Assembly: GCA_028819945.1 (NCBI GenBank)
Contig: JAPPKQ010000309.1
Location: 1 to 20,325 of the forward strand
Reading direction: 5' to 3'
Length of the DNA: 20,325 nt
DNA from: a bacterium
Lineage (GTDB): Bacteria; Actinomycetota; Acidimicrobiia; Acidimicrobiales; CATQHL01
In this document: positions 6,059-20,325 of the stretch, one piece after another
Layout of the letters: the number at the start of each line of letters is the position of its first letter
Position numbering within the stretch: position 1 is the first letter of the stretch
Made by a program: the position numbers and the translations under genes
The notes under the pieces: model-generated
Databases searched by the model: none
What the model saw: only the letters and a program-made list of their open reading frames with translations
What the model was told of the DNA's origin: nothing

Positions 6059-6625
6059 CTACCCGCCCCGGGCCGGCACCGACCCGGATACGATCTCGAC
6101 CTCCCCGAGCACGGGATGCGGTATCGGCATCACACCCAGGTACGCTCTGCGGCGCCAGTGGTGATTCGGCGTTATCAGCTCCGAGGAACTGTGCGCGCGC
6201 CCGCATTCGCTGCACACCAAGGTGCCCACGTCGTCGGCGTACACCGAAGGCAGACCCGACCCGGGGCATACCATGCTCTTCGTCGAAGCGAACGCCGCGG
6301 CGCGCACCGCTGCCACGCGGTGCAGATGCTCACCCTGCCACGGCTTCGCCGTCACCAGCAGGTTGCAGACGAAACCACCGCCGACCATCCCCAGCAGCGC
6401 TGTGGTCAGAGACGACATCGGCAGCACCGACCCGGCCACTAAGCCGACGATCAGGCCGCCGCCGCCGCCCACGGCGCCTGCTGCCAGCGACGGCAACGGC
6501 ACCGAGCGGGGCAGCACGATGTTGCTGGTGAGCCGACCTATCCGGGGAGGGCCCGGATGGAACACTTTCGTCACCCACATCATCAGCATCGCACCACCCG
6601 ACCCTGCCGGCACGCCCAGCAGCAA
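6059..6625 (-). CDS. TcpE/PrgI-like conjugation membrane protein (putative)
   Basis: The frame runs from TTG 6625 (188 aa), with ATG 6589 as an alternative start that would cut into the first hydrophobic segment (LLLGVPAGSGGAMLMMWV). Further hydrophobic segments are at about 45-66 (LAAGAVGGGGGLIVGLVAG) and 70-92 (LTTALLGMVGGGFVCNLLV), followed by a basic stretch and a C-terminal domain with CPGSG and CSEC cysteines that could bind metal. The pattern LPRSVPL, two hydrophobic segments, then a short polar region resembles TcpE/PrgI-family proteins, which support the VirB4-type ATPase in monoderm type IV secretion (by eye only). It follows the VirB2/TcpD-like gene by 21 bp, the order seen in such loci, but no VirB4 gene follows; the parA centromere does. 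The frame is open directly after the upstream TGA. Confidence 0.5.
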   Translation of the reverse strand: MLLGVPAGSGGAMLMMWVTKVFHPGPPRIGRLTSNIVLPRSVPLPSLAAGAVGGGGGLIVGLVAGSVLPMSSLTTALLGMVGGGFVCNLLVTAKPWQGEHLHRVAAVRAAAFASTKSMVCPGSGLPSVYADDVGTLVCSECGRAHSSSELITPNHHWRRRAYLGVMPIPHPVLGEVEIVSGSVPARGG

Positions 6626-6646
6626 CCACAGCCAGCCTAGTTGCCG

Positions 6647-7081
6647 TCAGTCATCTGCAGGAGCAAGCCCTTCACCTATGCCGAAGACAGTTCCAATCGA
6701 CTTGAAGATGGAGTCAAGGAGCCCTATGAAGAATTCCAAGGCTGTCGCAACGAAACCCAAGTTGAACATGAACGCGCCCAGCAGCAGCACCCCGCCTATC
6801 GTCGGCAGCGCTCTGGTTATTCCCGAACCGCCCGTGACCGCCTTGTATATCTGGCTTCCCGTAACGCCGATCACCATAACGACCGCGAGAGCCTGGACTA
6901 CAGACTGGACTATCCCCCCTATATCCGATTGAAGGAAATTCGTAAGAGTACCGGATACGTCGTCGTTTGATGTTGTTGGTGCTGTGTCGTCTGTGTCGTC
7001 TGTGTCGTCGTGTGATGTTGCTGTTATGACGGGCACGACCGCTGCCAGGTGATGGGACTGTTGCGGCAATGGCTCCGACAC
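6647..7081 (-). CDS. Two-TM VirB2/TcpD-like membrane protein (putative)
   Basis: This 144-aa protein starts at GTG 7081. An N-terminal Asp/Thr-rich linker (about 25-40, encoded by a 9-bp repeat near 6985-7010) precedes two transmembrane helices, about 54-78 (IVQSVVQALAVVMVIGVTG) and 90-118 (ALPTIGGVLLLGAFMFNLGF...). A short Gly-containing loop separates them, and an amphipathic tail follows. Two close helices with a small loop are the layout of VirB2-type pilins and TcpD-like channel proteins of monoderm conjugation systems. The assignment rests on topology and on the following TcpE-like gene, not on a diagnostic motif. The start is uncertain: no clear Shine-Dalgarno precedes GTG 7081, and the frame remains open upstream through PPLLVGLFPV, which could belong to a signal sequence. 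Confidence 0.5.
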   Translation of the reverse strand: MSEPLPQQSHHLAAVVPVITATSHDDTDDTDDTAPTTSNDDVSGTLTNFLQSDIGGIVQSVVQALAVVMVIGVTGSQIYKAVTGGSGITRALPTIGGVLLLGAFMFNLGFVATALEFFIGLLDSIFKSIGTVFGIGEGLAPADD

Positions 7082-7172
7082 GGGGAACAGCCCGACCAGC
7101 AGGGGCGGATCCTGATGCCCCGTCCGGTTGGCACCATAAAAATTCCCGACCGCACTCCCCCCACAAATCCCC

Positions 7173-7183
7173 GGGGGGGGGGG
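7173..7183. repeat. Run of 11 G
   Basis: Eleven G directly after CCCC lie in the 163-bp gap between the one-TM gene (7245-7493) and the VirB2-like gene (start 7081). Runs this long slip in replication and in sequencing, so the local length is unreliable. Confidence 0.9.
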
Positions 7184-7244
7184 CCGCCGTCGGCGGCTCT
7201 GGCGTCACGGTGCACGACCATCCGGCGCGGTGTCGGTTTCCGTG

Positions 7245-7493
7245 TCAGGTCAGATACCAGACCAACAGGGCCAGGACCGCGACGGCCGCGAGGCCCCCGA
7301 TCACGTAGGACTGCGTGCCGCCACTGAACATGTTTCCTGACATGGACGCGAATCCTAGCCCTCGGAGCGTGCGATCCATGCGCCCGCGCCGCGGCCCGCT
7401 CGGAGGCGCACCCGCCGGACCTTGGACGGGTCCTTGCGGTGGCGGTGCGGGGGGCCGCACGATCTCGCGGGGTGGGCGCACGGCGCTGCTCAC
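7245..7493 (-). CDS. Small tail-anchored-type membrane protein
   Basis: This 82-aa protein begins at GTG 7493, which overlaps the upstream gene's TGA in a GTGA, indicating translational coupling. The first 35 residues are proline-rich and basic (REIVRPPAPPPQGPVQGP...), then a Gly/Ser hinge, then one C-terminal transmembrane helix (about 62-81, YVIGGLAAVAVLALLVWYL), with the protein ending right after it. That implies a cytoplasmic N terminus and a membrane anchor. I recognise no family. Its position between the PilT-type ATPase block and the VirB2-like gene suggests a part of the same envelope machine. Confidence 0.65.
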   Translation of the reverse strand: MSSAVRPPREIVRPPAPPPQGPVQGPAGAPPSGPRRGRMDRTLRGLGFASMSGNMFSGGTQSYVIGGLAAVAVLALLVWYLT

Positions 7494-8551
7494 GGCCGGC
7501 GCTGCTCATGGCCGGCCGGGCAGGCTTTCGTGGACGGCGACACCTTGTGCCGGCACACCGAGCCCGTCAGCGTCGGCGCCCCGCAGTGAACCAGCCGCCT
7601 GGGTTTGGAGCGGCCGGTCCCGCGCGCGGGGTTCTTGCCGGCCGGCGCGGGCTTGCGCTGGACGGGCGGCGGGAGCGGGAGATGCCTGCGAGCCTGCGCG
7701 GCGTACGACCTGATGTCGGGATGGCCGGAGCAGTCGCCGCCGGTCCGGTACCACAGCACCGCCGCGTCGGGGTCGAGCTCGCACATCGCAGCGAGCGCGC
7801 AGAAGCCGGCCACGCAGACGAAATCGCGGTCGGTCATAAGGCCCAGCAGCCGCTGCTCGAGCCTGTCGGTCTCGCCGAGGCTGGCGCCCGCGGCGGCCTG
7901 CTCGCACAGCCACGCCTCGGCCCGGTCGATGAAATGGGGTTCCACGAGGTGCCGGGTCGCCCGCGGCACCCCGACCTTCGTGAGCACCGCCGACAGGCCC
8001 CGCGGCTCGATCCTGGTGCCGGGCCCGTCGGAGCGGTAGGTGGCGCCGATGTCCGCGATCGTCGCTTTGAGCACGCCCGCGCCGATGCGGTCGTCGACCA
8101 GGTCGAAAGGGTTCATCGGGTCGGCCGTGCCCATCGCGTCCATCATCGCCGCGGCCACCGCCAGGTCCCGTTCCAGCCGTGCCCGCCAGCCGCCGTCCCC
8201 GTCGCCCGCCCCGGCGCGGGCGGTATGGCGGCGGGCGCAGCGCTCGTAGCGAGCGACGCAGTCCTGCCAGGTCTCCGGCGGCCACGCCTCCGGCTCGGCG
8301 TCGACCGGCCGGGTGTATACCCACCTTCCCGCGAGGCCGTCCCGCGCTGACACGCGCCATCCCGACCAGCCGCCGTCGCGCACGAACCAGTCGCAGGCGT
8401 CCGCGGCGAGCGGTTCCAGCGTCACCTGGTGGCGCAGCGTCACCGACGCCGCTTCGGCAGGGCCCGTGCCGGCGCATCTGCGGATGACCGTCGTGCGGGC
8501 CGCGGGGTGGCTGTCGGCGACTTCGTAGCACGTGTCCGGCGGGGTTCGCAC
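7490..8551 (-). CDS. Hypothetical protein with C-terminal zinc-finger-like motif
   Basis: The start is GTG 8551 with a GGGGG tract 12 bases upstream; the protein is 353 aa. The open frame continues far upstream, but that part is antiparallel to the PilT-type coding frame and is not believed. The body is soluble, Trp- and Asp-rich in its first third (DACDWFVRDGGWSGWRVS), with cysteines scattered around 240-280. The tail has CGAPTLTGSVCRHKVSPSTK followed by a C and H, giving C..C..C..H. This matches small treble-clef-like motifs common at the ends of actinobacterial accessory proteins and suggests nucleic-acid or protein binding. It is translationally coupled to the one-TM gene and lies 113 bp after the PilT-type gene. 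No function is claimed. Confidence 0.65.
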   Translation of the reverse strand: MRTPPDTCYEVADSHPAARTTVIRRCAGTGPAEAASVTLRHQVTLEPLAADACDWFVRDGGWSGWRVSARDGLAGRWVYTRPVDAEPEAWPPETWQDCVARYERCARRHTARAGAGDGDGGWRARLERDLAVAAAMMDAMGTADPMNPFDLVDDRIGAGVLKATIADIGATYRSDGPGTRIEPRGLSAVLTKVGVPRATRHLVEPHFIDRAEAWLCEQAAAGASLGETDRLEQRLLGLMTDRDFVCVAGFCALAAMCELDPDAAVLWYRTGGDCSGHPDIRSYAAQARRHLPLPPPVQRKPAPAGKNPARGTGRSKPRRLVHCGAPTLTGSVCRHKVSPSTKACPAGHEQRRP

Positions 8552-8581
8552 AGCCGGGATACTACCCCCGCGCGGATGGCA

Positions 8582-8596
8582 GCGCTCCCGGAGCGC
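8582..8596. repeat. 15-bp palindrome, copy 3 of the repeated motif
   Basis: GCGCTCCCGGAGCGC has 7-bp arms and a 1-nt centre. On the minus strand it contains CGCTCCGGGAGCG, the 13-mer found at 3667-3679 and 5966-5978. It sits in the gap downstream of the PilT-type gene. Confidence 0.65.
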
Positions 8597-8664
8597 GACG
8601 GCGCGCGCCGCGGCCCTCCCGGCGCGACGGCCTCTCGCGGTCCGTGCCGTGGATGCGTGGGCTT

Positions 8665-9717
8665 CTAGACCGCGCGGGCTTGGCGCAGCAGCAGGTCGAA
8701 CGTCTCGGGGTCGACGCTCTCGCAGCGTGCTTCGTGGTCGGTCACCAGGCCCTGCAGGCATTTGGACGCCAGAGCGTGGTCGAGACCGGCCTGGAGGTTC
8801 TCCATGTGGGTGCGGAGCCTGCCGATCTCGCCGCCGGGCCTGATCCACTGCCGCATCGAAGAGGAGAACAGCATGACCTCCGCCACGACGTGGCACCCGC
8901 GGGGATCCGCCGCGTCGGGCAGCAGCCTCTGGGAGATCACGCCTCTCAGCACCTGGGACAGCAGCACCTGACCGACCCGGCCAGTGGCAGCCGAGATCCG
9001 TTCGCAGACCCCGGCACCGTCGGGGGCGTGCACGCAGGTGAGCACCAGGTGCCCGGCGGCGGCCAGCGCCAGGCACAGCTCGAAATCGGCGGCGGTCAGG
9101 CACTCGCCGACCAGCACCACGTCCGGGTCGGTGCTCAGAACGGTGCGCAGCGTCGACCCCCGGACACGGGGATCGACATCGCGCTGCGACACCAGCGACA
9201 GCTTCGGCTGGTGCAGGTACTCCACCGGGTGCTCGATCGTGAGGATGCGGGCCTCCCTGGTGGAGTTGACGAGGTCCACCAGCGACGCCAGCGTTGTGGT
9301 GAGGCCCGAGCGCGCCACGCCAGCGGCGATCACCAGACCCGACGATTGCGCCGCCAGCATGCGCACTTCGTCCGGCAGTCCCAGCTGCTCCAGCGGCGGC
9401 GCCGTCTGGGGCATCAGTCTGAAGGAGGCGCTCAGACCGCCGACCCCGTCCCAGCAGGACGCTCTCCACCTCAGCCCGTCGACGCCGGCCACTGTGGAGA
9501 CGGTGTCGAGGGCCGAGGCCCACGAGTCCCTGGAGCATCCGCCGATCCAAGCGGACACGGCTTCCATCTCGCGTGCGCTCGAACGGTTCGCGCCGGTGAG
9601 CGGAGCGAACCGCCCGCCCTGCCTGAGCCAGGGAGGGAGCGATTCGTTCACGTGGACGTCCGAGGCCTGCGGACGCATCGCGGTGGCCTCGGCCAGCGCC
9701 GCGTGGGTGACGGGCAT
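8665..9717 (-). CDS. PilT-family ATPase with degenerate Walker A
   Basis: From ATG 9717 the protein is 350 aa, close to the roughly 345 of PilT. This start has GAGG six bases upstream and places the ASDVHVN motif (18-24) as in PilT; ATG 9762 would add 15 residues. Other motifs: Asp-box region ILTIEHPVEY (158-167), Walker B DPDVVLVGE (197-205), His box GHLVLTCVH (222-230), and RGVISQRLLP (258-267), diagnostic of the PilT/PilU/PilB-GspE superfamily. Walker A reads GVARSGLT (133-140): the invariant lysine is leucine. The usual IEDP of the Asp box is IEHP. PilT hexamers power pilus retraction; this one should bind or hydrolyse ATP poorly, so it may act as a partner subunit as PilU-like proteins do, or be decaying. 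The rest of the fold looks intact and the frame is unbroken. Confidence 0.85.
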   Translation of the reverse strand: MPVTHAALAEATAMRPQASDVHVNESLPPWLRQGGRFAPLTGANRSSAREMEAVSAWIGGCSRDSWASALDTVSTVAGVDGLRWRASCWDGVGGLSASFRLMPQTAPPLEQLGLPDEVRMLAAQSSGLVIAAGVARSGLTTTLASLVDLVNSTREARILTIEHPVEYLHQPKLSLVSQRDVDPRVRGSTLRTVLSTDPDVVLVGECLTAADFELCLALAAAGHLVLTCVHAPDGAGVCERISAATGRVGQVLLSQVLRGVISQRLLPDAADPRGCHVVAEVMLFSSSMRQWIRPGGEIGRLRTHMENLQAGLDHALASKCLQGLVTDHEARCESVDPETFDLLLRQARAV

Positions 9718-9883
9718 GCTGACCTCGGAGTCGGGCGGGATCGGGAGCCCGGTCAGGTTCATCCCGGACCGCGTCCCGCACCCCCGGCCCCGAGGGGAGG
9801 CGCGATCCCGGCTCTGCCGACGGGTCCGCCGGGGCGTCCCCGGCCACCGCTGCGTCCCCGGCGTCCGGGAGCCGGCGGAGGTC

Positions 9884-10306
9884 TCATGTGCGCTGCAACT
9901 GCTCGGGTACGCCGAACGCCGACTCCAGCTCGATGCACATGCTGGTCACGGCACGCTCTTCAGGCCCCTCCTCGGCGGCTTCGGCTATCTGCTCCACGGT
10001 GGGTATGCCGTAAACCACGGGGAACTCGTGCTCGGCCTGGCGTGCCAGCGTCTCCGAGCAGAGCCAGGCCCATACGACCACGTCGCTGCCGGCCTCCCTC
10101 ACCGAACGCGCCGCTGAGAGGTGCGCCGGGCACGACACCACCACCAGCAGCGGGTCGCCGGCGAACACCGCCTGGCCGTACGGCAGGCCCACCTGTTGCT
10201 GCTGCTCGTAGGTCGGCTGCGGAGGACCGGCGCCACCCGCCGAAGGGGCCGCGGGAACGTAGATCGTCCTGGCGTGTTCCGATGCCGCTTCTTCGCTGCC
10301 GCCCAT
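9884..10306 (-). CDS. Hypothetical acidic protein
   Basis: This 140-aa protein starts at ATG 10306. An N-terminal Pro/Gln segment (AGGAGPPQPTYEQQQQ) precedes a soluble alpha/beta-looking domain (LLVVVSCPAHL, DVVVWAWLC, FPVVYGIPTVEQIAEAAEE), and the C terminus is acidic. No transmembrane helix or known motif is recognised. It is divergently transcribed from the prepilin peptidase gene across a 298-bp region holding three copies of a CGGGTACCGT motif, one of them 5 bp from this start. It precedes the PilT-type gene on the same strand, so it may be the first gene of that block. Confidence 0.6.
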   Translation of the reverse strand: MGGSEEAASEHARTIYVPAAPSAGGAGPPQPTYEQQQQVGLPYGQAVFAGDPLLVVVSCPAHLSAARSVREAGSDVVVWAWLCSETLARQAEHEFPVVYGIPTVEQIAEAAEEGPEERAVTSMCIELESAFGVPEQLQRT

Positions 10307-10597: not shown

Positions 10598-10604
10598 GTA
10601 GCTG

Positions 10605-11456
10605 ATGTCGGCGGGTTCCTCTCTGGTGTTCCTGGGTGCGGCGCTCGCGGCGGGCACCTTCGGGGGTGCGGCCGTGCTGCGCCGCATAGGCGAGCGCGGC
10701 CCTACGCGCACGGTGATGGGGACCTCTGCGGCCGTCGTTGTGGTTTTCGGGATGCTGGCGGTGCTGCCCCGCCCGCCGGTTCCGCAGGGCGCGATGCTGC
10801 CGCTGCTCGCGATGGCGGCGGCGCTGGGGGCGGGCTGGACCACCGACACCGCCAGCATGCGGCTGCCGCACACCACCGCCAACTCGGCGCTCGCGGCCGT
10901 CCCGGCGGGATCGGTGATCGCCGTGTCGGCCGCGCCGGTGGCGGCGGGCATCGTCTTCAAGCCACCCACCACTCGCACGGTCATCGTCTGGCACGTCTGG
11001 GGACGTGCCGCTCTGGCGGTGTTCACGCTGGCCTCCCTGCGCCATCCCGGGCCGGGCGCTCCAGGCGGCGGGCTGGTGGCTGTGCTGGGGGTCACGCTGG
11101 CGGTGCTCGCGGTGGGGCGGCTCCTGGTGTGGGCGGGTCAGGCAGGCGCCGGCGACCCCGTGTGGGTGGCCGCCTGTGTCATGGCCGCCGCATCCCACGC
11201 GTTGCTGACCGCCGGCGTTCCCGTCCACGGGCCGGGCGCGTGGGCGGTGGCGTGGATGGGAGCGTCGGTGTTCCTGGCTTCCGGCGCCACCGCCGCGCTG
11301 GCGCTGGCCGCGGTCACCGGCGGAGGCCTCGCCATCGCGGGACGCCCCGTGCTCGCGGGGCAGTGGACCGCTCTGGGGCTCATAGGATTCGTCGTCGCCT
11401 GGAAGTTCACGCCTCTAGGGCCGGACTTCGCCGGAGGCTGGGCCGCTCTCGCGTGA
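10605..11456 (+). CDS. Divergent prepilin peptidase (A24/PilD-like)
   Basis: ATG 10605 is preceded by GGGTAG; the protein is 283 aa and polytopic, with about seven or eight hydrophobic segments. Two aspartate motifs identify it. WTTDTASMRLPHTTA (78-92) matches the D..(x)LP..T signature after the first catalytic Asp (D81). GAGDPVWVAA (181-190) matches GxGD with the second catalytic Asp (D184). Family enzymes cut prepilins after a conserved Gly on the cytoplasmic membrane face and often methylate the new N terminus. The N-terminal zinc/methyltransferase region of PilD is absent, as in short TadV/archaeal-type enzymes. The three prepilins here are the obvious substrates. The lysine that often follows GxGD is replaced (GAGDPV), so it is divergent. 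Confidence 0.75.
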   Translation: MSAGSSLVFLGAALAAGTFGGAAVLRRIGERGPTRTVMGTSAAVVVVFGMLAVLPRPPVPQGAMLPLLAMAAALGAGWTTDTASMRLPHTTANSALAAVPAGSVIAVSAAPVAAGIVFKPPTTRTVIVWHVWGRAALAVFTLASLRHPGPGAPGGGLVAVLGVTLAVLAVGRLLVWAGQAGAGDPVWVAACVMAAASHALLTAGVPVHGPGAWAVAWMGASVFLASGATAALALAAVTGGGLAIAGRPVLAGQWTALGLIGFVVAWKFTPLGPDFAGGWAALA

Positions 11457-11569: not shown

Positions 11570-12385
11570 CTACGCGTCCGGCAAGGAGCGGCGCCATCTG
11601 CCCCCGCTCACATGCGCCGGGAGGGACCTGGACGTGCGCAACCACTTGCCGCCCGGCCCGTGGCCGCCTTTGACGCGGTCGAGCAGGCCGTCGCGTTCCG
11701 CCTGGGCCAGCGCCGCGGCGCGGATGTCGTCGATCCCGTAGCGGGAGGCGAGGAGCCTGGAACGTGAATTGAGCGCTGCGTTGGCGTCGGCCCACGTGAC
11801 CGGATCCGGCAGATGCTTCTCGGCGTTGCGGGCGATGCGCAGCGCAGAACGGCGCACGAACATCGCCTCCGCCCAGTCCCGGTCGGACGCTTCCGCGTGT
11901 ATGGAGGCTGCGGTCTGGGCGAGCTCGTACAGGCCTGTCACGGCCCGGCACCCGTCGACGTCCCACCCGATGCGCAGCTCCGCTGTCATGGTCTCGCCGA
12001 AGTGGTCGCCTTCATCGAGGCAGGTCAGCAGCAGATCGAGCCGGGTGGTGCCGTCGTCGGCCATGTCGCGGCCTGCCACGCAGGGAGCCCATTCCGCTAG
12101 GGGACCGCCCCCGGCCTGCCCGACCCGGCGGTGCGAGAACCTCAAAGGGCTCAGACCGCTCAGACACCGCTCCGCCAGCCGCTGGGACTCCTGAGGCCAG
12201 TCGGACGCGGTGATCACGTCGCCCCAGCCGTTCAGGGACCGTGGAGCGATGTCCGCGGGCAGGCCGGTGACCGGATCGATGGCCACCAGCCGCGCCGGGC
12301 GCAGGTTCATGCTCGCCGTGTCGTCGGCCCAGGTCATGCTCACAGGGCACAGAGCGGTGAGCGGCGGGATAGCAGCAGACGGCAA
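11570..12385 (-). CDS. Hypothetical protein
   Basis: The start is TTG 12385, chosen because CGAGGAG lies about six bases upstream; the protein is 271 aa, and an in-frame ATG lies at 12337. It looks soluble. The first half is acidic with WADDTASMNL and GWGDVITASDWPQE. The middle contains LLLTCLDEGDHFGETMTAELRIGWDVDG. The C-terminal third is helical and basic (RSALRIARNAEKHLPD, RSRLLASRYGIDDIRAAALAQAERDGL, KWLRTSRSLP), perhaps a nucleic-acid-binding end. I recognise no family. It converges on the prepilin peptidase gene with 113 bp between the stops. Confidence 0.6.
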   Translation of the reverse strand: MPSAAIPPLTALCPVSMTWADDTASMNLRPARLVAIDPVTGLPADIAPRSLNGWGDVITASDWPQESQRLAERCLSGLSPLRFSHRRVGQAGGGPLAEWAPCVAGRDMADDGTTRLDLLLTCLDEGDHFGETMTAELRIGWDVDGCRAVTGLYELAQTAASIHAEASDRDWAEAMFVRRSALRIARNAEKHLPDPVTWADANAALNSRSRLLASRYGIDDIRAAALAQAERDGLLDRVKGGHGPGGKWLRTSRSLPAHVSGGRWRRSLPDA

Positions 12386-12688
12386 GGGAATCTCCTCGGA
12401 CGCACCCACGCGCTCTTCAGGGTAAGCGCACGCCCGGGGCCGCGCCAACAGCAGGCGAGGACACGACCGCCCCGGCATCCACGGGAATCACATAGGTGAC
12501 CCGACATCCCGTCCCGGACCGCCGGCCGTGAGCATGCTCCCTGCAAGGGTTCGAGGACTCGGCATGCGCCGCGTGGGGATTCCCGCCGTACGACGCCTCG
12601 AAGACACGGAGCCGCGCGCTCACGGCCCGCGCGGTCATGAGAGCACGCAACCATGCGACCCGGCATCCATGGCCGCCGGTCCGGGCCG
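12386..12688. other. Intergenic stretch, nothing recognised
   Basis: About 300 bp lie between the recombinase-like gene's stop and the TTG start of the next minus-strand gene. Short open frames exist on both strands, but none has a good ribosome site or family-like composition. No tRNA, T-tract terminator or repeat array is seen. Confidence 0.4.
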
Positions 12689-13582
12689 TCAGCTTCTGCG
12701 TTCCCTGCTGAGCATCCCCGACAGGGTGCCGGCGCTCCACTGCCGGCCGGTTCGTGTGGGCAGGCCGTCGTCGTTGAGGCCGCGGGCGATCTGCGCCAGG
12801 GTCCGGCCCTGGGCCCGTTCGGATTTAGCGCGTTCCATCAGACCCATCCCTTCGGGCCATCTCACCATCGCCTCCACCGCCTTCTTGGTCCACTCCCGGA
12901 CGTCCCTGTTCCTGCGCCCGCCGGGCAGGGGCACACCGTCGTCGTTGAAGCCTGCGGCGATCTCGGCGCTCGAGCGTCCCTCGGCGTGCTCGGCCAGAGC
13001 CCTCTTCCACGAGTCCAGGTAGGAGAGCCCCCCGTCCGGCTCGTCCACGGGGCTCCCGGCCGCGCCGGCATCCGTGGGTTTCCGGGACGGCTCTCCGGCG
13101 CCGGCGGGCGGCGGCACCTCGAACCCACCGGCGCCGGCGGTGTCACGGCCCAGCTGCGCCAGCCCGCACAGCATCCTCACTGCGAACCTCCCCTCCGGGG
13201 TGGAGGTGTCGACGTCGGCGCCGGGCACCAGCAGCCGCCAGCCGTCGCTGCGGGCGCAGTCCGCCAGGAGCATCACGATCCCGGCTGAGCATGCGATCCT
13301 GTCGATTCCCGACACGGACAGCGCCGCGGCCCCGCCCGATGACAGCGTCATCAGCGCCGGGCGCATCCCGGGCCTGGCGAAGGGCTGCACGCTGCCCGGA
13401 ACCCCGTCGTCGACGACCTCCTCTATCTGATCGAAGCCGTTGAGCCTCGCGTGCGCCGCCGCGGCGGCCAGCTGCAGCTCCGCCGGCGGGGCCGAACCGC
13501 CCGGCCCGGCCCGGGCGTAAGCGAACGCCTTGCGGCTCCGGGCGCCGCCGCCCGGAACGCCGGAGCGGCCGCGCGATGCCAT
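12689..13582 (-). CDS. Serine-recombinase-like protein lacking the catalytic serine
   Basis: This is 297 aa from ATG 13582. The N-terminal resolvase-like domain has AFAYARAG (19-26), GMRPALMTL (72-80), SGIDRIACSAG (91-101) and DTSTPEGRFAVRML (125-138), in the order seen in large serine recombinases. The catalytic serine of the YxRxS motif is Gly26, and the second arginine of the DRxxR motif is Cys98, so strand cleavage by the usual mechanism looks impossible. The C-terminal part has two similar DNA-binding-type units, about 195-240 (EGRSSAEIAAGFNDDGVPLP) and 250-291 (QGRTLAQIARGLNDDGLPTR, then TGRQWSAGTLSGML), like the recombinase domain segment 'LN..G.pt..G..W....v..il'. It may be a DNA-binding regulator or architectural protein, or a decaying enzyme. 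It sits just downstream of the minor-pilin pair on the same strand. Confidence 0.75.
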   Translation of the reverse strand: MASRGRSGVPGGGARSRKAFAYARAGPGGSAPPAELQLAAAAAHARLNGFDQIEEVVDDGVPGSVQPFARPGMRPALMTLSSGGAAALSVSGIDRIACSAGIVMLLADCARSDGWRLLVPGADVDTSTPEGRFAVRMLCGLAQLGRDTAGAGGFEVPPPAGAGEPSRKPTDAGAAGSPVDEPDGGLSYLDSWKRALAEHAEGRSSAEIAAGFNDDGVPLPGGRRNRDVREWTKKAVEAMVRWPEGMGLMERAKSERAQGRTLAQIARGLNDDGLPTRTGRQWSAGTLSGMLSRERRS

Positions 13583-13696: not shown

Positions 13697-14794
13697 TCAC
13701 GATCTGCGGCCCGGTGAGACCGTGACCGTCTTCATGGTGCATGTCTGCCCGTAGGGCCTGTCCGTGGTCGGCAGTCTCTCTTGGGGGGTTCTGAGCTGGA
13801 GTTCGGCATCGGACATGGACACGCACAGATCGACGATCACCGCTGCGACACCCTGGCTCTCCCTGAGACCCGTGGCGGCGTCGGTGGCGTCGAACTCACC
13901 GGGGGCGCAGTCCCGCTCCTGAAGCTGCGGCAGGGCCACGGCGCCGGTGTCCAGCGCCGACTCGGGGTCGGGGTCGGGACCCTCCACGCACCGCCACACG
14001 TCGTGGATGCCGGGATCGTTCGTGGAATGGAAGGAACTGCCTATGCTCTCGACGCGGCCGGTCACGATCGACACGCGGTACGGGTCCGGGTTCCAGAGCG
14101 CCTTTTTCGGGACGAACATGTCGGCGGTGCCGGCGGGATCGACCGGACGGTGGGCCGCCACCATCAGGTCGCCCCCGATGACGCCCTGGCGGACCGCGGG
14201 CGTGGCGGAGCGATGGTACCAGCACTCCAGATCCCTGGGATCATCGAGGGATGCGGTGCCGTCCGCGTCGAGCGCGGCGGCCAGAGAGTCCGGCTCGACC
14301 ATCCAGCATACCACTGTGGAGTTCCCGGAGTAGTCGGTCCAGTCCGGGGCTGGGAGAGGCACCGGGAACGGCGCCTGCGCTGCCGTGAGGCACTCCGAGC
14401 GCGTGGCTTCATCGCCCCCCAGGTCGTCGGGGGTCGGGTTGGCGCACTGTTCCGATGCCAGCATCCGCTCGGCGGACCTGGCCAGCTCGCGCGCCGCGAT
14501 CCGCTCGGGTCGCTCGGCTTCGCTCCGAGGGGAGAACACCCCGATCGCCAGCAGCACCAGCAGCGTCATCGAGGTCATGACGATCCCGGTGATGGTCAGG
14601 TCGACCACTACCTCCATGACGGTCAGGCCGCAGTCGGGAGCCCGGCCCGCGGCCCGGTCCGGTCGTGTGCTGCGGCCCCGGGCATGCGGCGGACACCGCG
14701 CAGCGCGAGCGGGGCGCCGGCCCGGCACGGACCCTGTCACGGGCCTTCCGGTCCCGTCCGGCCGGGTGTGCGTGCCCGCTGACCACCGGTGCAT
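13697..14794 (-). CDS. PilW-like minor prepilin
   Basis: This 365-aa protein starts at ATG 14794, which shares its A with the upstream stop (TGATG), so it is coupled to the PilV-like gene. The prepilin signature lies at CG|LTVMEVVVDLTITGIVMTS: Gly at -1 and Glu at +5, then a hydrophobic helix of about 25 residues ending in LLAIGVF. The leader is unusually long (56 aa) and arginine-rich. The body is secreted-type, with scattered cysteines (SEQCANP, VVCWMV, LECWYH, DVWRC, DLCVS, QTCTM) likely to form disulfides outside the membrane. PilW/PilJ-type minor pilins form tip complexes that prime assembly (family knowledge). Tip function here is inferred from pairing with a PilV-like partner. Confidence 0.75.
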   Translation of the reverse strand: MHRWSAGTHTRPDGTGRPVTGSVPGRRPARAARCPPHARGRSTRPDRAAGRAPDCGLTVMEVVVDLTITGIVMTSMTLLVLLAIGVFSPRSEAERPERIAARELARSAERMLASEQCANPTPDDLGGDEATRSECLTAAQAPFPVPLPAPDWTDYSGNSTVVCWMVEPDSLAAALDADGTASLDDPRDLECWYHRSATPAVRQGVIGGDLMVAAHRPVDPAGTADMFVPKKALWNPDPYRVSIVTGRVESIGSSFHSTNDPGIHDVWRCVEGPDPDPESALDTGAVALPQLQERDCAPGEFDATDAATGLRESQGVAAVIVDLCVSMSDAELQLRTPQERLPTTDRPYGQTCTMKTVTVSPGRRS

Positions 14795-15657
14795 CAGATG
14801 CAGGACAGGTCGGGATCGTTCCAACCTTCTTTGAGCACGCATTTCGTATAACCCGCCGCCACGGTCTCTCCCGGTCGGGCTACGAGTACCTTGCACCCCC
14901 CGTAGGAAGGCACCTGGACGTCCTCGTACTGCCCGGCGGCGAGGAGGTATCCGTAACTCTCCCGGGTCCGGGCCGGTGTCGAAGCGCTGTCGGGCACTAC
15001 GCCGGTGACGTCGCCGGTGGCCGGTCTGGCCGTCCACCCCCGCGTGAGCGGCACGGACGGCCCCAACGCTGTGCGTGTCAGTGTGCGCAGGCCGCTGCCG
15101 TCGCGCCAGGTGGCTGTGATCTCGCGCACCGCCCGCGGGGGGTCGTCCGTCGCGCCGCACCCATCGGTCCACGTCCCGGCCGGGACCGGCCGGTCGCGGC
15201 ATTCGACCGGATCGACCGGCGGATCGATCCGCCGGTCGCAGCTGCCCATGTCGGCCAGCCGGTAGTAGTCGGCCCATTCTATCGTTATCAGCTTGTGGCC
15301 CGACGTCCCCGGACCGACCCCGGCCGGTCTGACGACCTCGCCGGGCTGCTGCTCCAGGACGCCGTTGCTGTCCCTGCTGGTGCCGGAAACGGCCGTGACG
15401 GGCGGCCCGCAGACGGCCGACTGCCCGGCATGCTGGACGCAGTCGACGTTGCGGGCCGCTTTGGCGGCCTCCTCGATGAGGGCCACGGCATCCGCGCGGA
15501 GGCGCTCGCGGCGCTCGACGTTGGTTATGGTGATACGGAAGGAGAGGACCATCGCCGCTGTGACAGCGAGCACGACGATCGCCACCACCGTCTCGGCCAG
15601 CGAGCCGTCATCGTTCGCGGTCCGCTCACGCTCACCGGCCCGGCCGGGCGTGCTCAC
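14794..15657 (-). CDS. PilV-like minor prepilin
   Basis: This 287-aa protein starts at GTG 15657. A short charged leader (STPGRAGERERTANDD) precedes GSLAETVVAIVVLAVTAAMVL, a prepilin N-terminal helix resembling the SLxExxVAIxxL pattern of PilV. Glutamate is at +4 if cleavage follows the Gly, or +5 if it precedes it, an irregularity against the G|xxxxE consensus. The extracellular part carries several cysteines (NVDCVQ, AVCGPP, GSCDRR, DGCGATD, GGCKVL, TKCVLK, LSCI). There is no obvious Shine-Dalgarno. The start overlaps the TGA of a short upstream frame in a GTGA, so translation may depend on coupling to a small leader peptide. It is followed without a gap by the PilW-like gene. Confidence 0.72.
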   Translation of the reverse strand: MSTPGRAGERERTANDDGSLAETVVAIVVLAVTAAMVLSFRITITNVERRERLRADAVALIEEAAKAARNVDCVQHAGQSAVCGPPVTAVSGTSRDSNGVLEQQPGEVVRPAGVGPGTSGHKLITIEWADYYRLADMGSCDRRIDPPVDPVECRDRPVPAGTWTDGCGATDDPPRAVREITATWRDGSGLRTLTRTALGPSVPLTRGWTARPATGDVTGVVPDSASTPARTRESYGYLLAAGQYEDVQVPSYGGCKVLVARPGETVAAGYTKCVLKEGWNDPDLSCI

Positions 15658-15751
15658 GCGGAGGGATACGGCATGAGGACTCCACCGGCATACGGAGCGA
15701 CCGGCATCGGCTCGGCGGGTCCGGTGGCCGGGCCTGCGGTGCGCGGCATGC

Positions 15752-16163: not shown

Positions 16164-16199
16164 ACCGCCGGAGACCGCCCGCGCCGCGCCGCCCCTGCG

Positions 16200-16231
16200 A
16201 AAAAACCACCCCGCCGGCGGCGCCGGCGGGC
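16200..16231 (-). terminator. Rho-independent terminator of the major pilin gene
   Basis: On the minus strand a perfect 9-bp stem (CCCGCCGGC/GCCGGCGGG, 3-nt loop, 16211-16231) is followed after a few bases by seven T (16206-16200). It lies about 50 bp past the pilin stop codon. It separates the pilin transcript from the minor pilins further along. Confidence 0.85.
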
Positions 16232-16279
16232 GCGGCGCACACGGAAGCAGGGACCGCACCCGCCGAACGTCGCCGGGCC

Positions 16280-17191
16280 TCAAGCCTCAGGCGTGGCGTA
16301 TCCGCCGTAGGCGCTCGTGGCGGCCTGGACCTTGCCGTTCGGGGCCAACAGCGACGGGTCGGTTCCGGTGGTGCCCGGCATCTCCTCGAAGATATCATTC
16401 CCCGAAGTGAAAGCTCCGCAATCGGCTCCCCACCCGGCTAGTGTGGCGCTTTCGTTCACCGACTGGTGGCCCTCCCCCGACACCGCCCCGTTGGACGAGT
16501 CCTGCACCAGTATGCTGCAGAAACTGCTGCCGCTGGCACCCACGAGGCCGATACGTATGACGTCGCCGGCGCGGATCTTCGTATCATCCGGCACTGTAGT
16601 CGCCAGACCGTGCGTAGTCGCAGAGAAACCTTTGGGGTTGGAGCCGCCGACGGTGATGGCGGCGGTTGATTCCAACGCAGCGCTCGGCAAGTGGACCCAG
16701 ACCTTGCTGACATTGGGGTCCGCGCCCTTTATCGTCCCGAAGGTGTTCTTCGCAATGAAGTTGATGGCCGGCTCCTGTGCTTGCATCAACCTAGCGGCCT
16801 CCGCGGATGCGGCGGCTACATCGCTGAAACCTACCAACGACGCGGCGGTGGCTGTGCCATCGGCCGCGAAGTTGTTGGTGCCTCCGGGCAGTGTGATGCT
16901 ATACACGCCCCTGGCAGCGGACGCCGCGGACCTCAACGTCGCCATCGCCGCGGAGTCCTGGGCCTGCTGACGCAGCTTCAGCGCCTGGGCTATCACCGCT
17001 GTCGACAGGATCGCCAGCAGGATCACACCTATTATTATCTCCGCGGGGGTGAAGCCCGAGTCGTCGGCTCTTCGACCCGCCCGGCTCCCGCGGAGACGGT
17101 CCCGGTGCGAGGACCGCTCCACGGGCCGGCTCTCACCACCTCCCGCCTCGGATTCGTGCGACCGACCGCAAGGTGCCATATAACCCATCAT
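16280..17191 (-). CDS. Type IV major pilin precursor
   Basis: The prepilin signature is DSG|FTPAEIIIGVILLAILST: Gly at -1, Phe at +1, Glu at +5, then a hydrophobic helix and the heptad-like KLRQQAQDSAAMATLRSAASAARG typical of the pilin N-terminal helix. The mature form is about 257 aa. Two cysteines, SSFC and ADCGAF, near the C-terminal half could close a D-region loop. The start is uncertain: ATG 17191 or 17188 (GGATGG upstream, leader about 46 aa), or GTG 17122 (GGTGAG upstream, leader about 23 aa). AT-richer codons and Asn/Thr/Ser content fit a surface fibre subunit. It is divergent from the PilM-N/PilO operon and has its own promoter and terminator, consistent with high expression of the main subunit. 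Confidence 0.88.
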   Translation of the reverse strand: MMGYMAPCGRSHESEAGGGESRPVERSSHRDRLRGSRAGRRADDSGFTPAEIIIGVILLAILSTAVIAQALKLRQQAQDSAAMATLRSAASAARGVYSITLPGGTNNFAADGTATAASLVGFSDVAAASAEAARLMQAQEPAINFIAKNTFGTIKGADPNVSKVWVHLPSAALESTAAITVGGSNPKGFSATTHGLATTVPDDTKIRAGDVIRIGLVGASGSSFCSILVQDSSNGAVSGEGHQSVNESATLAGWGADCGAFTSGNDIFEEMPGTTGTDPSLLAPNGKVQAATSAYGGYATPEA

Positions 17192-17229
17192 CAAACCATC
17201 CGAATGCTTTCGTGTCCAGCTTCCGTACG

Positions 17230-17238
17230 ATCATAGCA
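17230..17238 (-). promoter_or_regulatory. Extended -10 promoter of the pilin gene
   Basis: On the minus strand TGCTATGAT is an extended -10 (TGn plus TATGAT) about 40 bp upstream of the first ATG. No good -35 is present at the usual spacing, which is normal for extended -10 promoters. Confidence 0.5.
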
Positions 17239-17380
17239 GATCCCACGGTCACGGCGCCGGCGGGCGGCGCGGCTGCGCCGATCCGCGGGCGACCAGGTAA
17301 GGTGACCGCAGGCCGGTGAAGGTGGAGGCCCCCCAGGGCTTCCCGCCCGGCGGGGCCGTACGGCTGAAGGAGAACACCCA

Positions 17381-18739
17381 TTGGGAACACCGTCCGGGGA
17401 TGCGCTGGGCAGGCGGCGGGCGCCGCTGGTGGTGACGGTGGACGGCACCAGGGTCACCGAGGTCAGGTTCAGATCCGGCGAGGCGGTGTCGGTGTCCGAA
17501 CACGACCACGGCACCGAACTGGAAGCGGTCCAGGCTGCGGCGTCCAAGCGGGGCAACAGACTGCTCGTGTGGTGCGGTCCCGTCTCCGCTCGCGTGTCCC
17601 GGCCGGCGGCCTCGTCCGAGCATCCCGACGCGGCCGCCCTGGCCGACGCCGCATACCTCCAGAAGGTGTTCGGGAAGGATCGCCCGGCCGCTATGAGCGG
17701 GGAGGTGGCCATGTCGCCGGACATGGCCGACGACACGGCCGCGTTCGTAGCGTCGCGCCGGCCCCGGATGGTGATGTCGGGGATGTGCGTGAGATCGGAG
17801 GACGAAGGCATCTGGCTGCGGGTGGGGCGTTCCGTCGTGGAGGCCACGCTCGTGCACGGCGGGCGGATCAGCGGTTGGAGTCAGCTGTGCGAGGGCCTGG
17901 ATTCCGTCGCCGGGCAGATATCCGGGGGCCGTGCCGCTCAGAGGGCACGCTCCGACCTGGCCGAACGTGTGGTGCTCGAGACCCGCAGAGCGATCATGCA
18001 GTGGCAGCGCACCCGCACCGTGCCGCCGTCCATATGGCTGCACGGTCCCGGCGGGGACCCGTCAGGCGATATCCACCAGGCTCTGCTCTCCCGCAGCGGC
18101 TGCAGGGTGGCGCTGCCGGCGGTGGACGCGGCAGCGGAAGCGGCCCAGCACGCTCTGGTGCTGCCGGTCGCGGCGTGTTCTCTGGCCGCTGCCCGACTGC
18201 AGCAGCCTGCGAGGGTGCTGCAGTCGGCGAGCAGAGGCAACAGGGCGCTGGCGCTCAAGGTGGCCGCATCCGCGGTGGCGGTGCTCGCGGTCATGGCGAT
18301 CGTGGCGGCGTTGCAGGGCAGATCGGTCGGGCAGAGAATCGATGCCGCCACGAGAGAGATCGGACTGTACCAAGACGACCCCCAGGCCGCCGCCGATAAA
18401 CAGATCGTGGCAGAGGCCGAAGAGGCGCAGACCCTCCTCTCCCGCCTGTCGGGATCCGGCGGCCCGAACTGGGAGATGCTGTTCGCGCTCAACGAACGGT
18501 TCCGCGGCTACGCCGAGGACGAGGAGTTCTCGCTGCGCTCGGACAGGCAGCAGACGTCGATCTCCCTGACCGTCCCGGGAGGCATCGAGCATCTCACGGG
18601 TGTGCTCGACGAACTGGACGTGTGGGCCGAAGCGATCTACGGGCCCGGCGCGTACTCGGTGAGCGGATCCGGCGTCGACGAGATCCCCGGCAGCGGGATA
18701 CAGGTGACGGTACTGCTGGGACATCACCGGGAGCAGTAG
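17381..18739 (+). CDS. PilM-PilN-type fusion, type IV pilus assembly
   Basis: The start is TTG 17381 with AAGGAG eight bases upstream; the protein is 452 aa. Residues 1-280 resemble a degenerate actin-like PilM: LVVTVDGTRVTEVRFRSGEAV near the start, EGIWLRVGRSVVEATLVHGG in the middle, then SIWLHGPGG...GDIHQALLSRSGCRV and a closing helix ALVLPVAACSLAAARL, parallel to the second half of ASKHA folds. A single transmembrane helix (about 292-312, VAASAVAVLAVMAIVAAL) and an external domain of about 140 residues match the PilN layout. PilM, PilN and PilO form the inner-membrane alignment complex linking motor ATPases to the pilus; PilM and PilN are normally separate and tied by a PilN N-terminal peptide. 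The PilO-like gene follows after 4 bp. The fusion is read from composition and order, not from a search. Confidence 0.7.
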   Translation: MGTPSGDALGRRRAPLVVTVDGTRVTEVRFRSGEAVSVSEHDHGTELEAVQAAASKRGNRLLVWCGPVSARVSRPAASSEHPDAAALADAAYLQKVFGKDRPAAMSGEVAMSPDMADDTAAFVASRRPRMVMSGMCVRSEDEGIWLRVGRSVVEATLVHGGRISGWSQLCEGLDSVAGQISGGRAAQRARSDLAERVVLETRRAIMQWQRTRTVPPSIWLHGPGGDPSGDIHQALLSRSGCRVALPAVDAAAEAAQHALVLPVAACSLAAARLQQPARVLQSASRGNRALALKVAASAVAVLAVMAIVAALQGRSVGQRIDAATREIGLYQDDPQAAADKQIVAEAEEAQTLLSRLSGSGGPNWEMLFALNERFRGYAEDEEFSLRSDRQQTSISLTVPGGIEHLTGVLDELDVWAEAIYGPGAYSVSGSGVDEIPGSGIQVTVLLGHHREQ

Positions 18740-18743
18740 GTAG

Positions 18744-20325
18744 ATGGCCCCCAAGTTGACTTTCTGGCTCCTGATCTCGGTGGCGGTGCTGTGGGCGGTC
18801 TGGACGCTGGGTCTCAGGGGGCTGCGCGGCGACGTCGACCTGGCCGAGACGCTCGATCAGCGGCTGGCGGACCTGTCGGCGGCGGCGTCGGACACGGCGG
18901 GATCGTCCATGGATCCCGCCGAGGCCAGAGAGGTGCTCGACCGGTACCGGGACACGTTCATCTGGCTGGGCGATCCGCTGGCCCCGAACCAGCGCGAGGC
19001 CGACTTCCGGACGGTGTGCCCGGAGGTCAAGAGACGCCTCAGCGCTGCGGTCACCGGGATCTACAGTTACTCGTGCACCGTCGGCGAAGCCCAGCCGGCC
19101 GCCACCTCGACACGGGTGGTGCCGCTGGATCTCAGTGTCACGGCCGCCGGGGAGGGCGACGGGAAGCGTCTCGTGCTCGCCGTGGAGGAGGACCCGTCGA
19201 TGCTGCTGAAAGAGATCACGGTCTCCTCCACGAGTGATGCCCCCGGTGATGCCCCCGGCGGCCCGCCCGGGAGCGGAGACGGTCCGCGGGGCGATCCCTA
19301 CGCCGAGACCGTCTCCATGGGCGTCGATCTCTACCTTCTGGCCGAAGCCCCCGCGAGCGTCCTCGCCGATGCCGCGGAGCGCGCCGCGCTGCGCGGCAGG
19401 GAAGCCGAGAGGGGAGTGACACGCAAACGTCTGGCGGTCGCTGAGGCCCGGGCCGTCCTGGAAGCCGCCGAATCAGCCGACCCCCGCGATCTCGAGGCCG
19501 TCGCCGAGGCCCGATCGCTCCTGGCCGCAGCCCGCGCTGCGCTCGCCGCCGTAGAGGTGGAGGGAGCCGTCGCTGAGGTGGAGAACGCCGGACTGCAGAA
19601 CGCCGTCGCCGACCTGCGAGCCCTCCCGGGGAAGCTGTCGGACGCCAGGAGCGCACTGGACGCGGCCAGATCTGCGAACCCTGTGGACCCTGGGACCGTC
19701 GAAACGGCCGAGATGTCCATCGACACGACCGAGCAGACGATCGCCAGAGCCGCCGCGGCCGTCGCCGCGGAGGCCGCTCCGGCGTTGAGGGCCGTCCTGG
19801 TGGAACTGGACGCAGCGAGAACCGCTTTCAAGAACGCTCTGGACGCAGACACCGCGGCCGCAGCCGCAGCCGCGGAGGCCGCAGCCGCAGCCGCGGAGGC
19901 CGCAGCCGCAGCCGCGGAGGCCGAGCTGGAGGGCACCCCGGCAGGGCGGCCCGCCGCCCGTTACACGGCCGAGGCCGCGGAAGCGGCCCTCGCCCTCGCC
20001 GCTGGAACGCTCGGCACCGACCCCCCGCCCGGCGCGGCCTTCGCTGCCGCCGCCAGGGTTCTGGCCGCCGCCGCTGGAGACCCCTCCGAGACCCCCGCCC
20101 GGGCGGAGGCCGAGCTGGAGGCCGCGGAAGCGGCCTTCGCCCTCGCCGACACGGCCCTCGTACACGCCGCCGCGACGGTGGTCGTGGCCGACGCATGGAC
20201 GGTTCTGGCCGTCGCCGCCGCCCGCCTGGGCCCCCCCCCCCCCCCCCGGGGGACCGCCCCCGCCCCAACCGTCGCTGTGGCAGCGGCTCTCGAGGAGCAC
20301 GCCCCCGCCCGCCAGGCACCCGTAT
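18744..20325 (+). CDS. PilO-like protein with long alanine-rich tail (3' end outside window)
   Basis: ATG 18744 lies 4 bp after the PilM-N stop, suggesting coupling. The frame is open for over 525 codons to the window edge. Residues 5-24 form one transmembrane helix (LTFWLLISVAVLWAVWTLGL). A coiled-coil-like stretch and an external domain with two cysteines (TVCPEV, YSCTV) and VVPLDLSVTA follow, the order of PilO. From about residue 215 the protein becomes Ala/Glu-rich and helical for more than 300 residues, well beyond the roughly 200 aa of PilO. The tail includes three copies of AAAAAAE, a duplicated EAAEAA(L/F)ALA segment and a Pro-rich patch encoded by 17 C. It may be a surface-spanning stalk or cell-wall spacer in a monoderm. 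If the window ends join, the frame would stop at 144-146. Confidence 0.7.
   Translation, partial: MAPKLTFWLLISVAVLWAVWTLGLRGLRGDVDLAETLDQRLADLSAAASDTAGSSMDPAEAREVLDRYRDTFIWLGDPLAPNQREADFRTVCPEVKRRLSAAVTGIYSYSCTVGEAQPAATSTRVVPLDLSVTAAGEGDGKRLVLAVEEDPSMLLKEITVSSTSDAPGDAPGGPPGSGDGPRGDPYAETVSMGVDLYLLAEAPASVLADAAERAALRGREAERGVTRKRLAVAEARAVLEAAESADPRDLEAVAEARSLLAAARAALAAVEVEGAVAEVENAGLQNAVADLRALPGKLSDARSALDAARSANPVDPGTVETAEMSIDTTEQTIARAAAAVAAEAAPALRAVLVELDAARTAFKNALDADTAAAAAAAEAAAAAAEAAAAAAEAELEGTPAGRPAARYTAEAAEAALALAAGTLGTDPPPGAAFAAAARVLAAAAGDPSETPARAEAELEAAEAAFALADTALVHAAATVVVADAWTVLAVAAARLGPPPPPRGTAPAPTVAVAAALEEHAPARQAPV
19857..19919 (+). repeat. Three tandem 21-bp repeats in the alanine-rich tail
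   Basis: Three identical 21-bp units (19857-19877, 19878-19898, 19899-19919) encode AAAAAAE each time. A heptapeptide period fits an extended helix or coiled coil and allows in-frame length change. Confidence 0.85.
20231..20247 (+). repeat. Run of 17 C inside the PilO-like gene
   Basis: Seventeen C encode a short proline run. The frame is open at this length; gain or loss of one base would shift it. This is either a slippage hot spot or an assembly error. Confidence 0.9.

What the first reader, a model, noticed from the sequence alone, without database searches (positions are those of the whole stretch)
6059..20325. Plasmid-borne type IV pilus module combined with conjugation-like membrane proteins
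On a Rep/ParA replicon the window carries a major pilin, two minor prepilins, a prepilin peptidase, a PilM-N fusion, a PilO-like protein, a PilT-type ATPase and possibly a pilus-localising ATPase. It also carries a VirB2/TcpD-like and TcpE-like pair, but no PilB, PilC or VirB4. A pilus system on a monoderm plasmid, perhaps working in transfer, DNA uptake or attachment, would be a largely undescribed combination. The organisation is seen; the joint function is inference.
Basis: partly seen in the sequence, partly recalled or inferred. Interest (0 to 1): 0.75.

Follow-up and report, generated by a model that had tools for sequence, protein, structure and literature searches.

The report
Plasmid pilus genes with altered motor
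A plasmid-like DNA piece from an uncultured bacterium, probably an actinobacterium, carries much of the gene set for a type IV pilus, and its pilus-retraction motor protein belongs to a small family in which the lysine normally needed to bind ATP has been replaced.

Summary
The window is one whole 20,325-bp contig, without terminal overlap, of a 76%-complete metagenome-assembled genome. It looks like a plasmid: two ParA-type ATPases, a putative initiator with iterons inside its gene, and repeat arrays. PilT is certain by profile and fold; PilM-PilN is supported by a low-confidence model; three ORFs carry prepilin-like N-termini; a peptidase and a PilO-like protein rest on motif and topology. 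The conjugation-like membrane pair has no profile support. PilB, PilC and VirB4 were not found here, but the contig is incomplete, so their absence from the replicon is unproven.

By shared contig lengths, two or three of PilT*, PilM-N and the TadZ-like ATPase recur on six other metagenomic contigs, so this is a replicon family. Pilus genes on actinobacterial plasmids are already annotated elsewhere. I rate it a new variant of a known kind: a plasmid type IV pilus module with a probably ATPase-defective PilT.

The parts
34..1326 (+). MinD/ParA-type ATPase, TadZ/CpaE-like (pilus-localising candidate). N-terminal part cut off by the contig end; an in-frame TGA lies at 31-33
2547..4187 (+). putative replication initiator with an AT-rich, iteron-bearing stretch (about 3040-3200) inside the ORF; open frame starts at 2022
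   Evidence: winged-helix match HTH_Crp_2 7.2e-5, below cut-off; repeats TTATCAAACGTT; no plasmid relative by tblastn
2281..2395 (.). 31-bp direct repeat array, 3.7 copies
   Evidence: a 22-nt stretch recurs inverted (91%) beside the 5671 array
4184..4720 (-). small protein, candidate centromere-binding partner of ParA
   Evidence: position downstream of parA and sequence by eye; no Pfam/NCBIfam match, PHROG repressor only at E 0.034
4717..5640 (-). ParA partition ATPase
   Evidence: AAA_31 7.7e-15; ParA_partition 1.9e-17, below cut-off
5671..5766 (.). 32-bp direct repeat array upstream of parA (candidate parS)
7245..7493 (-). 82-aa protein with one C-terminal TM segment
7490..8551 (-). unknown protein without predicted TM segment, Cys/His-containing C-terminus; start uncertain
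   Evidence: no family match; candidate starts
8665..9762 (-). PilT-like ATPase (PilT*) without the Walker A lysine (Leu154, codon CTC at 9301-9303) and with an Asp-box Asp-to-His change
9884..10306 (-). unknown 140-aa protein upstream of pilT*
   Evidence: no credible family match
10605..11456 (+). candidate A24-type prepilin peptidase: six predicted TM segments, D-x6-P and GxGD aspartates (motif recalled)
   Evidence: sequence, TM count; no Pfam, NCBIfam or PDB match and no alignment to one A24 peptidase
13697..14698 (-). minor prepilin candidate, N-terminus CG/LTVME followed by a hydrophobic stretch; start uncertain
   Evidence: sequence and TM; no credible profile match
14794..15747 (-). 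minor prepilin candidate, DG/SLAET followed by a hydrophobic stretch (Glu spacing one off the usual +5); start uncertain
   Evidence: sequence and TM; no credible profile match
16280..17194 (-). major prepilin candidate, SG/FTPAE followed by a hydrophobic stretch
   Evidence: GspG E 0.083, myxobacterial PilA E 0.099; geopilin E 0.014
17381..18739 (+). PilM-PilN fusion: actin-like domain, TM at 290-308, C-terminal alpha/beta domain; TTG start with AGGAG upstream
18744..20324 (+). PilO-like protein (N-terminal TM, then helix and a beta-rich stretch by eye) with a long Ala-rich tail; runs off the contig
   Evidence: position directly after PilM-N; TM; no profile match

Best explanation
This is the backbone and part of the pilus region of a plasmid-like replicon, probably of an uncultured actinobacterium. 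It encodes a type IV-a-like pilus: prepilins, a processing peptidase, a PilM-PilN/PilO inner-membrane alignment complex and a TadZ-like ATPase that would place the machine in the cell. Its PilT-like protein has lost the residues for normal ATP binding, yet the family is conserved. The most likely role is a ring that docks on the pilus platform (PilC) and lets a second, active ATPase retract or gates retraction, as catalytically dead Vibrio PilT does for PilU. Extension ATPase and platform are probably encoded on the unseen part of the replicon, less likely by the host. The pilus most likely serves attachment to neighbouring cells, perhaps for transfer of the replicon. Shown: gene content, fold of PilT*, the substitutions, their conservation, and linkage by shared contig length. 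Inferred: ATPase loss, docking role, missing PilB/PilC, and purpose.
For: Replicon: ParA partition gene with repeat array, iterons inside a putative initiator, second array. PilM-N was not found in the other 396 order genomes searched, nor the TadZ-like gene (E 1e-30) in the other 295 class genomes. Composition departs from the MAG: 0.72 against 0.87-0.94 for five pooled host pieces.

Pilus: as listed in the observation check.

Family and linkage: contig lengths shared between searches put PilM-N, PilT* and the TadZ-like ATPase together on contigs of 53,561 and 27,753 bp, and two of the three on 50,675, 29,617, 54,141 and 21,137 bp.

PilT* substitutions: the Walker A Lys is Leu in the window, Arg in 11 of 13, Lys only in P0029; the Asp-box Asp is His in 12 of 13; the R206 equivalent is lost in 10 of 13 (Lys in three of them). 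The 12 form one clade at 100/99, joined with P0029 at 100/99. All 17 comparison PilT-type loci keep the lysine (16 by pattern; L026 read by eye).

Precedent: Vibrio PilT K136A still supports PilU-dependent retraction (passages of PMC6821130). A natural PilT R206S variant makes PilU essential (passages of PMC6762196).
Against: No PilB or PilC is seen in the window or, apart from Tad-type loci, in the MAG, so a working pilus is not shown. No PilU-like partner is seen. The window's Leu differs from the family's Arg, so this copy could simply be decaying. Arg at the Walker A position might allow some nucleotide binding. The peptidase, PilO and minor prepilins have no profile support, and the PilM call rests on a weak model. 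Shared contig length is indirect evidence of linkage. Composition does not tie the contig to this MAG (0.72, no better than the 0.73-0.75 of three unrelated actinobacterial plasmids), so the host is uncertain; one other MAG contig (C445) departs even more (0.64), so an outlying value alone does not prove a separate replicon.
Confidence: 0.55

Rival explanations
1. A complete plasmid T4P of ordinary mechanism: PilT* is an active retraction ATPase that tolerates Arg in the P-loop, and the window's Leu is a recent loss or an assembly error in one copy. PilB and PilC are on the missing part.
For: All 11 close relatives keep a positive charge (Arg) at the site; the Walker B acid (Glu or Asp) and the final His-box His are kept in all 13 rows; the fold is fully PilT-like.
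Against: Asp-box Asp-to-His in 12 of 13 and loss of the R206 equivalent in 10 of 13 are further active-site changes within the clade, while the sister P0029 keeps all of these residues.
Confidence: 0.2
2. An accessory pilus kit that relies on the host's chromosomal T4P motor: the plasmid supplies pilins, alignment proteins and a PilT* that replaces or poisons the host retraction ring.
For: No PilB or PilC found in 20 kb; 100 of 198 order genomes (own included) have a PilT-type match, so T4P hosts are common.
Against: The assigned host lineage has no PilT match at E 1e-20 in 5 of 5 relatives and the MAG's other motors look Tad-type; related contigs reach 54 kb, so room for PilB and PilC exists.
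Confidence: 0.15
3. A decaying replicon: PilT* and the recombinase are degenerate and the pilus is no longer made.
For: Window-specific Leu at the P-loop; the recombinase seems to lack its catalytic serine (by eye, motif recalled); an in-frame TGA at 31-33 near the left end.
Against: Long intact ORFs; the Asp-box change in PilT* is shared by the whole clade; mean column identities of 43% and 64% in the PilM-N and PilT alignments argue for maintained genes.
Confidence: 0.1

Closest known systems
Type IVa pilus retraction ATPase PilT/PilU (PilT4 of Geobacter metallireducens, PDB 6ojx)
   Different: No Walker A lysine; Asp-box Asp is His; R206 equivalent lost in 10 of 13 family rows.
T4P gene sets on actinobacterial megaplasmids: Frondihabitans pNBRC108728a, Curtobacterium D40, Euzebya pEDY32-46I, Miltoncostaea unnamed1
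   Same: Secretion/pilus-type ATPases together with T2SSF/PilC-type proteins, some with PilM, PilO or a prepilin peptidase, on an actinobacterial plasmid; in Miltoncostaea next to replication genes.
   Different: These plasmids are 0.45-0.8 Mb and keep a canonical Walker A in the PilT-type gene. PilM of Frondihabitans, and the part of Miltoncostaea PilM that was fetched, show no sequence similarity to this PilM-N.
Mobile-element pili of Gram-negatives: IncI R64 thin pilus, PAPI-1 pilus, Yersinia ruckeri plasmid pYR4
   Same: A type IV pilus borne by a mobile element; PAPI-1 is transferred through it (PMC7324554, passages); pYR4 is titled as encoding both a type IV pilus and a type IV secretion system (PMC6232867, listing). 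R64's use in mating is recalled.
   Different: Those are Gram-negative. No shufflon-like repeats and no conjugation genes were found here.
Tad/Flp pilus localisation protein TadZ/CpaE
   Same: MinD-type ATPase; the longest relatives have an N-terminal domain that looks receiver-like by eye.
   Different: The CpaE_hom_Actino match is far below its cut-off, and here it sits with T4P-type partners.

Membership tests
PilT/PilU type IV pilus ATPase | PilT fold and family profile | tested here: met
PilT/PilU type IV pilus ATPase | Walker A lysine (GX4GKS/T) | tested here: not met
   Leu154 in the window, Arg in 11 relatives, Lys only in P0029
PilT/PilU type IV pilus ATPase | Walker B acid and final His-box histidine | tested here: met
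   Glu (10) or Asp (3), and the final His-box His, in 13 of 13
Type IV pilus machine | prepilin with class III signal and hydrophobic N-terminal helix | tested here: met
   16280-17194: SG/FTPAE then a 19-residue hydrophobic segment; weak pilin matches
Type IV pilus machine | PilM/PilN alignment proteins | tested here: met
Type IV pilus machine | A24 prepilin peptidase | tested here: inconclusive
   aspartate spacing (recalled motif) and six predicted TM segments fit, but no Pfam, NCBIfam or PDB match
Type IV pilus machine | extension ATPase PilB and platform PilC | tested here: inconclusive
   not found in the window; the MAG's other matches look Tad-type; contig incomplete and MAG 76% complete
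Conjugative type IV secretion system | VirB4, coupling protein, relaxase | tested here: inconclusive
   none among the ORFs scanned against Pfam, but the contig is incomplete
Conjugative type IV secretion system | VirB2- and TcpE-like membrane proteins | tested here: not met
   no family match above threshold for 6059-6625 or 6647-7081; distant relatives below profile sensitivity are not excluded
TadZ/CpaE | receiver-like N-domain plus MinD-type ATPase | tested here: inconclusive
   ATPase domain met; N-domain present only in longer relatives such as P0031, judged by eye, and cut off in the window
Plasmid | replication and partition genes with iterons | tested here: met
   ParA, repeat arrays, iterons in a putative initiator; initiator and ParA have no relative in the plasmid collection, so the call rests on anatomy

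The most novel reading that the evidence does not exclude
A family of actinobacterial plasmids encodes a type IV pilus whose PilT has been turned into a conserved, ATPase-dead adaptor or brake, so that retraction is powered or gated by a different ATPase. It would be a natural, fixed version of the dead PilT plus active partner arrangement that the papers seen here report from Vibrio mutants and one strain variant.
Probability: 0.3. Interest if true: 0.72.

Novelty: new variant of a known kind. Interest (0 to 1): 0.5.

Why it matters
If right, it shows that loss of ATP binding in a pilus retraction ring can be fixed by evolution rather than being only a laboratory mutation. It would give a natural system for separating PilT's docking role from its motor role, and it would add a monoderm plasmid family that invests in a pilus, which bears on how plasmids without a recognised conjugation system move.

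Tried and rejected
Rejected: ordinary chromosomal T4P locus of this lineage. Rejected: pilB/pilC on another contig of the MAG; the ATPases of C394 and C445 fit the TadA family best and C27 is read as Tad-type by eye. Rejected: C445 as another piece of the same replicon on composition; it is an outlier too, but closer to the rest of the MAG (0.64) than to the window (0.56), and shares no 20-mer with the window. Rejected: a pilin shufflon run by the serine recombinase; no suitable inverted repeats between 12400 and 17400. Not supported: the contig as a closed circle; no terminal overlap, its TadZ-like N-terminus is cut, and identical PilM-N and PilT proteins are listed on a contig of 21,355 bp.

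Led nowhere: viral-contig scans with PilT, A1, A2 and A3; one genome-contig scan gave 4 generic PilT-type loci; PilM-N in plasmid and phage collections; P0029 in plasmids (only hits under 60% identity) and in 396 phylum genomes (own only); Rfam and tRNA; sequence match of A1 to PDB, none below E 0.5; profile comparison of A1 with two plasmid PilM proteins.

Counts and limits: each protein search scored only the roughly 8,000 candidates sharing most words, and the PilT search was cut at E 1e-60, so family sizes are lower bounds. Of the 21 hits I aligned the 16 with more than 50% identity and left out 5 distant ones. All 13 PilT hits and all 16 PilM-N hits were aligned. The tree used 17 comparison loci that had already been fetched (of one search's four loci only two), not a random sample. 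The composition test used 17 of 23 fetched host stretches, as six read N. The genome search scores only a few candidates per genome after a loose first look.

Papers: passages only of PMC6821130, PMC6762196, PMC3244431 and PMC7324554; the rest as search listings (one search showed 20 of 32). That no paper on this PilT family or plasmid family came up rests on those searches of an open-access library alone.

Full report
What the window is. The window is the whole of contig C363 of a metagenome-assembled genome of 2.62 Mb in 485 contigs, 76% complete. Its ends do not overlap. Identical PilM-N and PilT proteins are listed on a contig of 21,355 bp, while the TadZ-like protein is listed on one of 20,325 bp. 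The contig is therefore taken to be incomplete. The left end cuts the N-terminal part of the TadZ-like ATPase: P0031 has 582 residues against 430 open codons here. The right end cuts the PilO-like ORF.

Replicon features. A ParA partition ATPase (4717-5640) lies beside a 32-bp repeat array (5671-5766) and a small downstream gene. A putative initiator (2547-4187; winged-helix match 7.2e-5, below cut-off) has an AT-rich region with TTATCAAACGTT repeats inside its reading frame, and a 31-bp array lies upstream of it. Neither initiator nor ParA has a relative in 72,556 plasmid records, so 'plasmid' is an inference from anatomy.

Host. The contig does not fit the MAG by tetranucleotide signature: correlation 0.72, against 0.87-0.94 for five pooled host pieces of similar length and 0.73-0.75 for three unrelated actinobacterial plasmids. 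One other MAG contig, C445, scores lower still (0.64). The host assignment is therefore open. The only organism names met are distant TadZ-like hits labelled Acidimicrobiia and Acidimicrobiales. The assignment to Actinomycetota is an inference from those names and from base composition.

Pilus genes. PilT is secure. PilM-N rests on fold: Foldseek's two best PDB hits are PilM, with low TM-scores, while the second aligner ties PilM with FtsA, on a model of mean pLDDT 59. Three ORFs show prepilin-like N-termini, and one of them has weak profile or PDB support. The peptidase fits the A24 aspartate spacing and has six predicted TM segments, but no family or PDB search matched it; the motif is recalled. 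PilO is called by position and topology only. The VirB2/TcpE-like calls find no support.

Motors elsewhere in the MAG. Whole-genome searches gave T2SSE matches on C394 and C445 and T2SSF matches on C27 and C445 besides the window's PilT. The C394 and C445 ATPases fit the TadA family best (6.7e-65 and 2e-40), each on a contig with a weak CpaB match nearby. No PilB or T4P-type PilC was recognised. The MAG is incomplete, so this is not proof of absence.

A conserved module. Searches of 5.8 billion proteins, each scoring about 8,000 candidates, returned 16 PilM-N proteins, 13 PilT proteins at E 1e-60, and 16 close TadZ-like proteins, each count including the window's own. Proteins listed with the same longest-contig length are taken to share a contig. 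On that basis all three occur together on contigs of 53,561 and 27,753 bp, and two of the three on 50,675, 29,617, 54,141 and 21,137 bp. In sampled genomes PilM-N was found only in the window's own among 397 of the order. The phylum sample of 396 adds only three fragments of about 95 residues. The TadZ-like gene, at E 1e-30, was found only in the own genome among 296 of the class. The family thus seems to live in uncultured organisms or on elements that genome collections miss.

The altered PilT. In the 13-sequence alignment the Walker A lysine position is Leu in the window, Arg in 11 and Lys only in P0029. The Asp-box Asp is His in 12 of 13. The arginine after Walker B (R206 of Vibrio PilT) is lost in 10 of 13, three of these having Lys, and kept in P0021, P0023 and P0029. 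The Walker B acid is Glu in 10 and Asp in 3, and the final His-box His is kept in all 13. The 12 substituted sequences form one clade (100/99), joined with P0029 (100/99), apart from 17 comparison PilT-type loci: 11 from order relatives, 4 from actinobacterial plasmids and 2 from other phyla. All 17 keep the lysine: 16 matched by pattern, and L026 read by eye. The tree flags three long comparison branches, all plasmid rows, and warns that one of them meets the long stem of this clade, so the depth of the join is unsure. The simplest reading is one loss on the stem of the clade. In the window the codon is CTC at 9301-9303.

What it probably does. In Vibrio cholerae a PilT with the Walker A lysine changed to alanine still supports retraction if PilU is present (passages of PMC6821130). 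A natural PilT R206S variant makes PilU essential (passages of PMC6762196). A conserved, probably ATP-blind PilT is therefore best read as a docking or gating ring for another ATPase. No such partner is visible in the window, so this step is inference. PilB and PilC are expected on the missing part, because relatives reach 54 kb, but that too is unproven. The purpose of the pilus (attachment, transfer or DNA uptake) is not determined. Among Gram-negative mobile elements, PAPI-1 is transferred through a type IV pilus (PMC7324554, passages).

Novelty. Pilus genes on actinobacterial plasmids are not new as annotations: Frondihabitans, Euzebya and Miltoncostaea plasmids carry PilT with a PilB-type ATPase and a PilC-type protein, and a Curtobacterium plasmid carries several T2SS/T4P/T4SS-family genes. 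What appears new is this replicon family and its PilT active site. Searches of an open-access library listed no paper that I recognised as on either; I saw listings and passages only.

Noticed in passing
12689-13582 (-): Serine-recombinase-like protein (Recombinase 7e-13, Resolvase 1.2e-9) whose N-terminus reads YARAG where a YxRxS motif with the catalytic serine is expected (motif recalled, judged by eye); possibly a non-catalytic DNA binder. A PDB comparison aligned only residues downstream of that site.
   Followed up: partly
3040-3200: AT-rich stretch with TTATCAAACGTT repeats in both orientations lies inside the reading frame of the putative initiator, reminiscent of origins placed within initiator genes (comparison recalled).
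   Followed up: partly
2281-2395 and 5651-5766: The two repeat arrays share a 22-nt stretch in inverted orientation (91%), flanking the rep-par segment; they may be sites for one binding protein.
   Followed up: no
11570-12478 (-): 302-aa protein without any credible family match, between the peptidase and the recombinase.
   Followed up: no
31-33: In-frame TGA near the left end of the TadZ-like reading frame, within Pro-rich repeats; real stop or sequence error not resolved.
   Followed up: no
L023 (G000:C394) and L024 (G000:C445): The MAG carries two Tad-type loci with TadA-family ATPases (6.7e-65 and 2e-40) and weak CpaB matches. C445 is a compositional outlier (0.64) and also holds two large proteins without any NCBIfam match.
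   Followed up: partly
L055 (Miltoncostaea oceani plasmid): PilM and PilO genes lie beside replication genes, which in turn precede PilB-, PilT- and PilC-type genes: pilus and replication genes are interleaved on another actinobacterial plasmid too.
   Followed up: no
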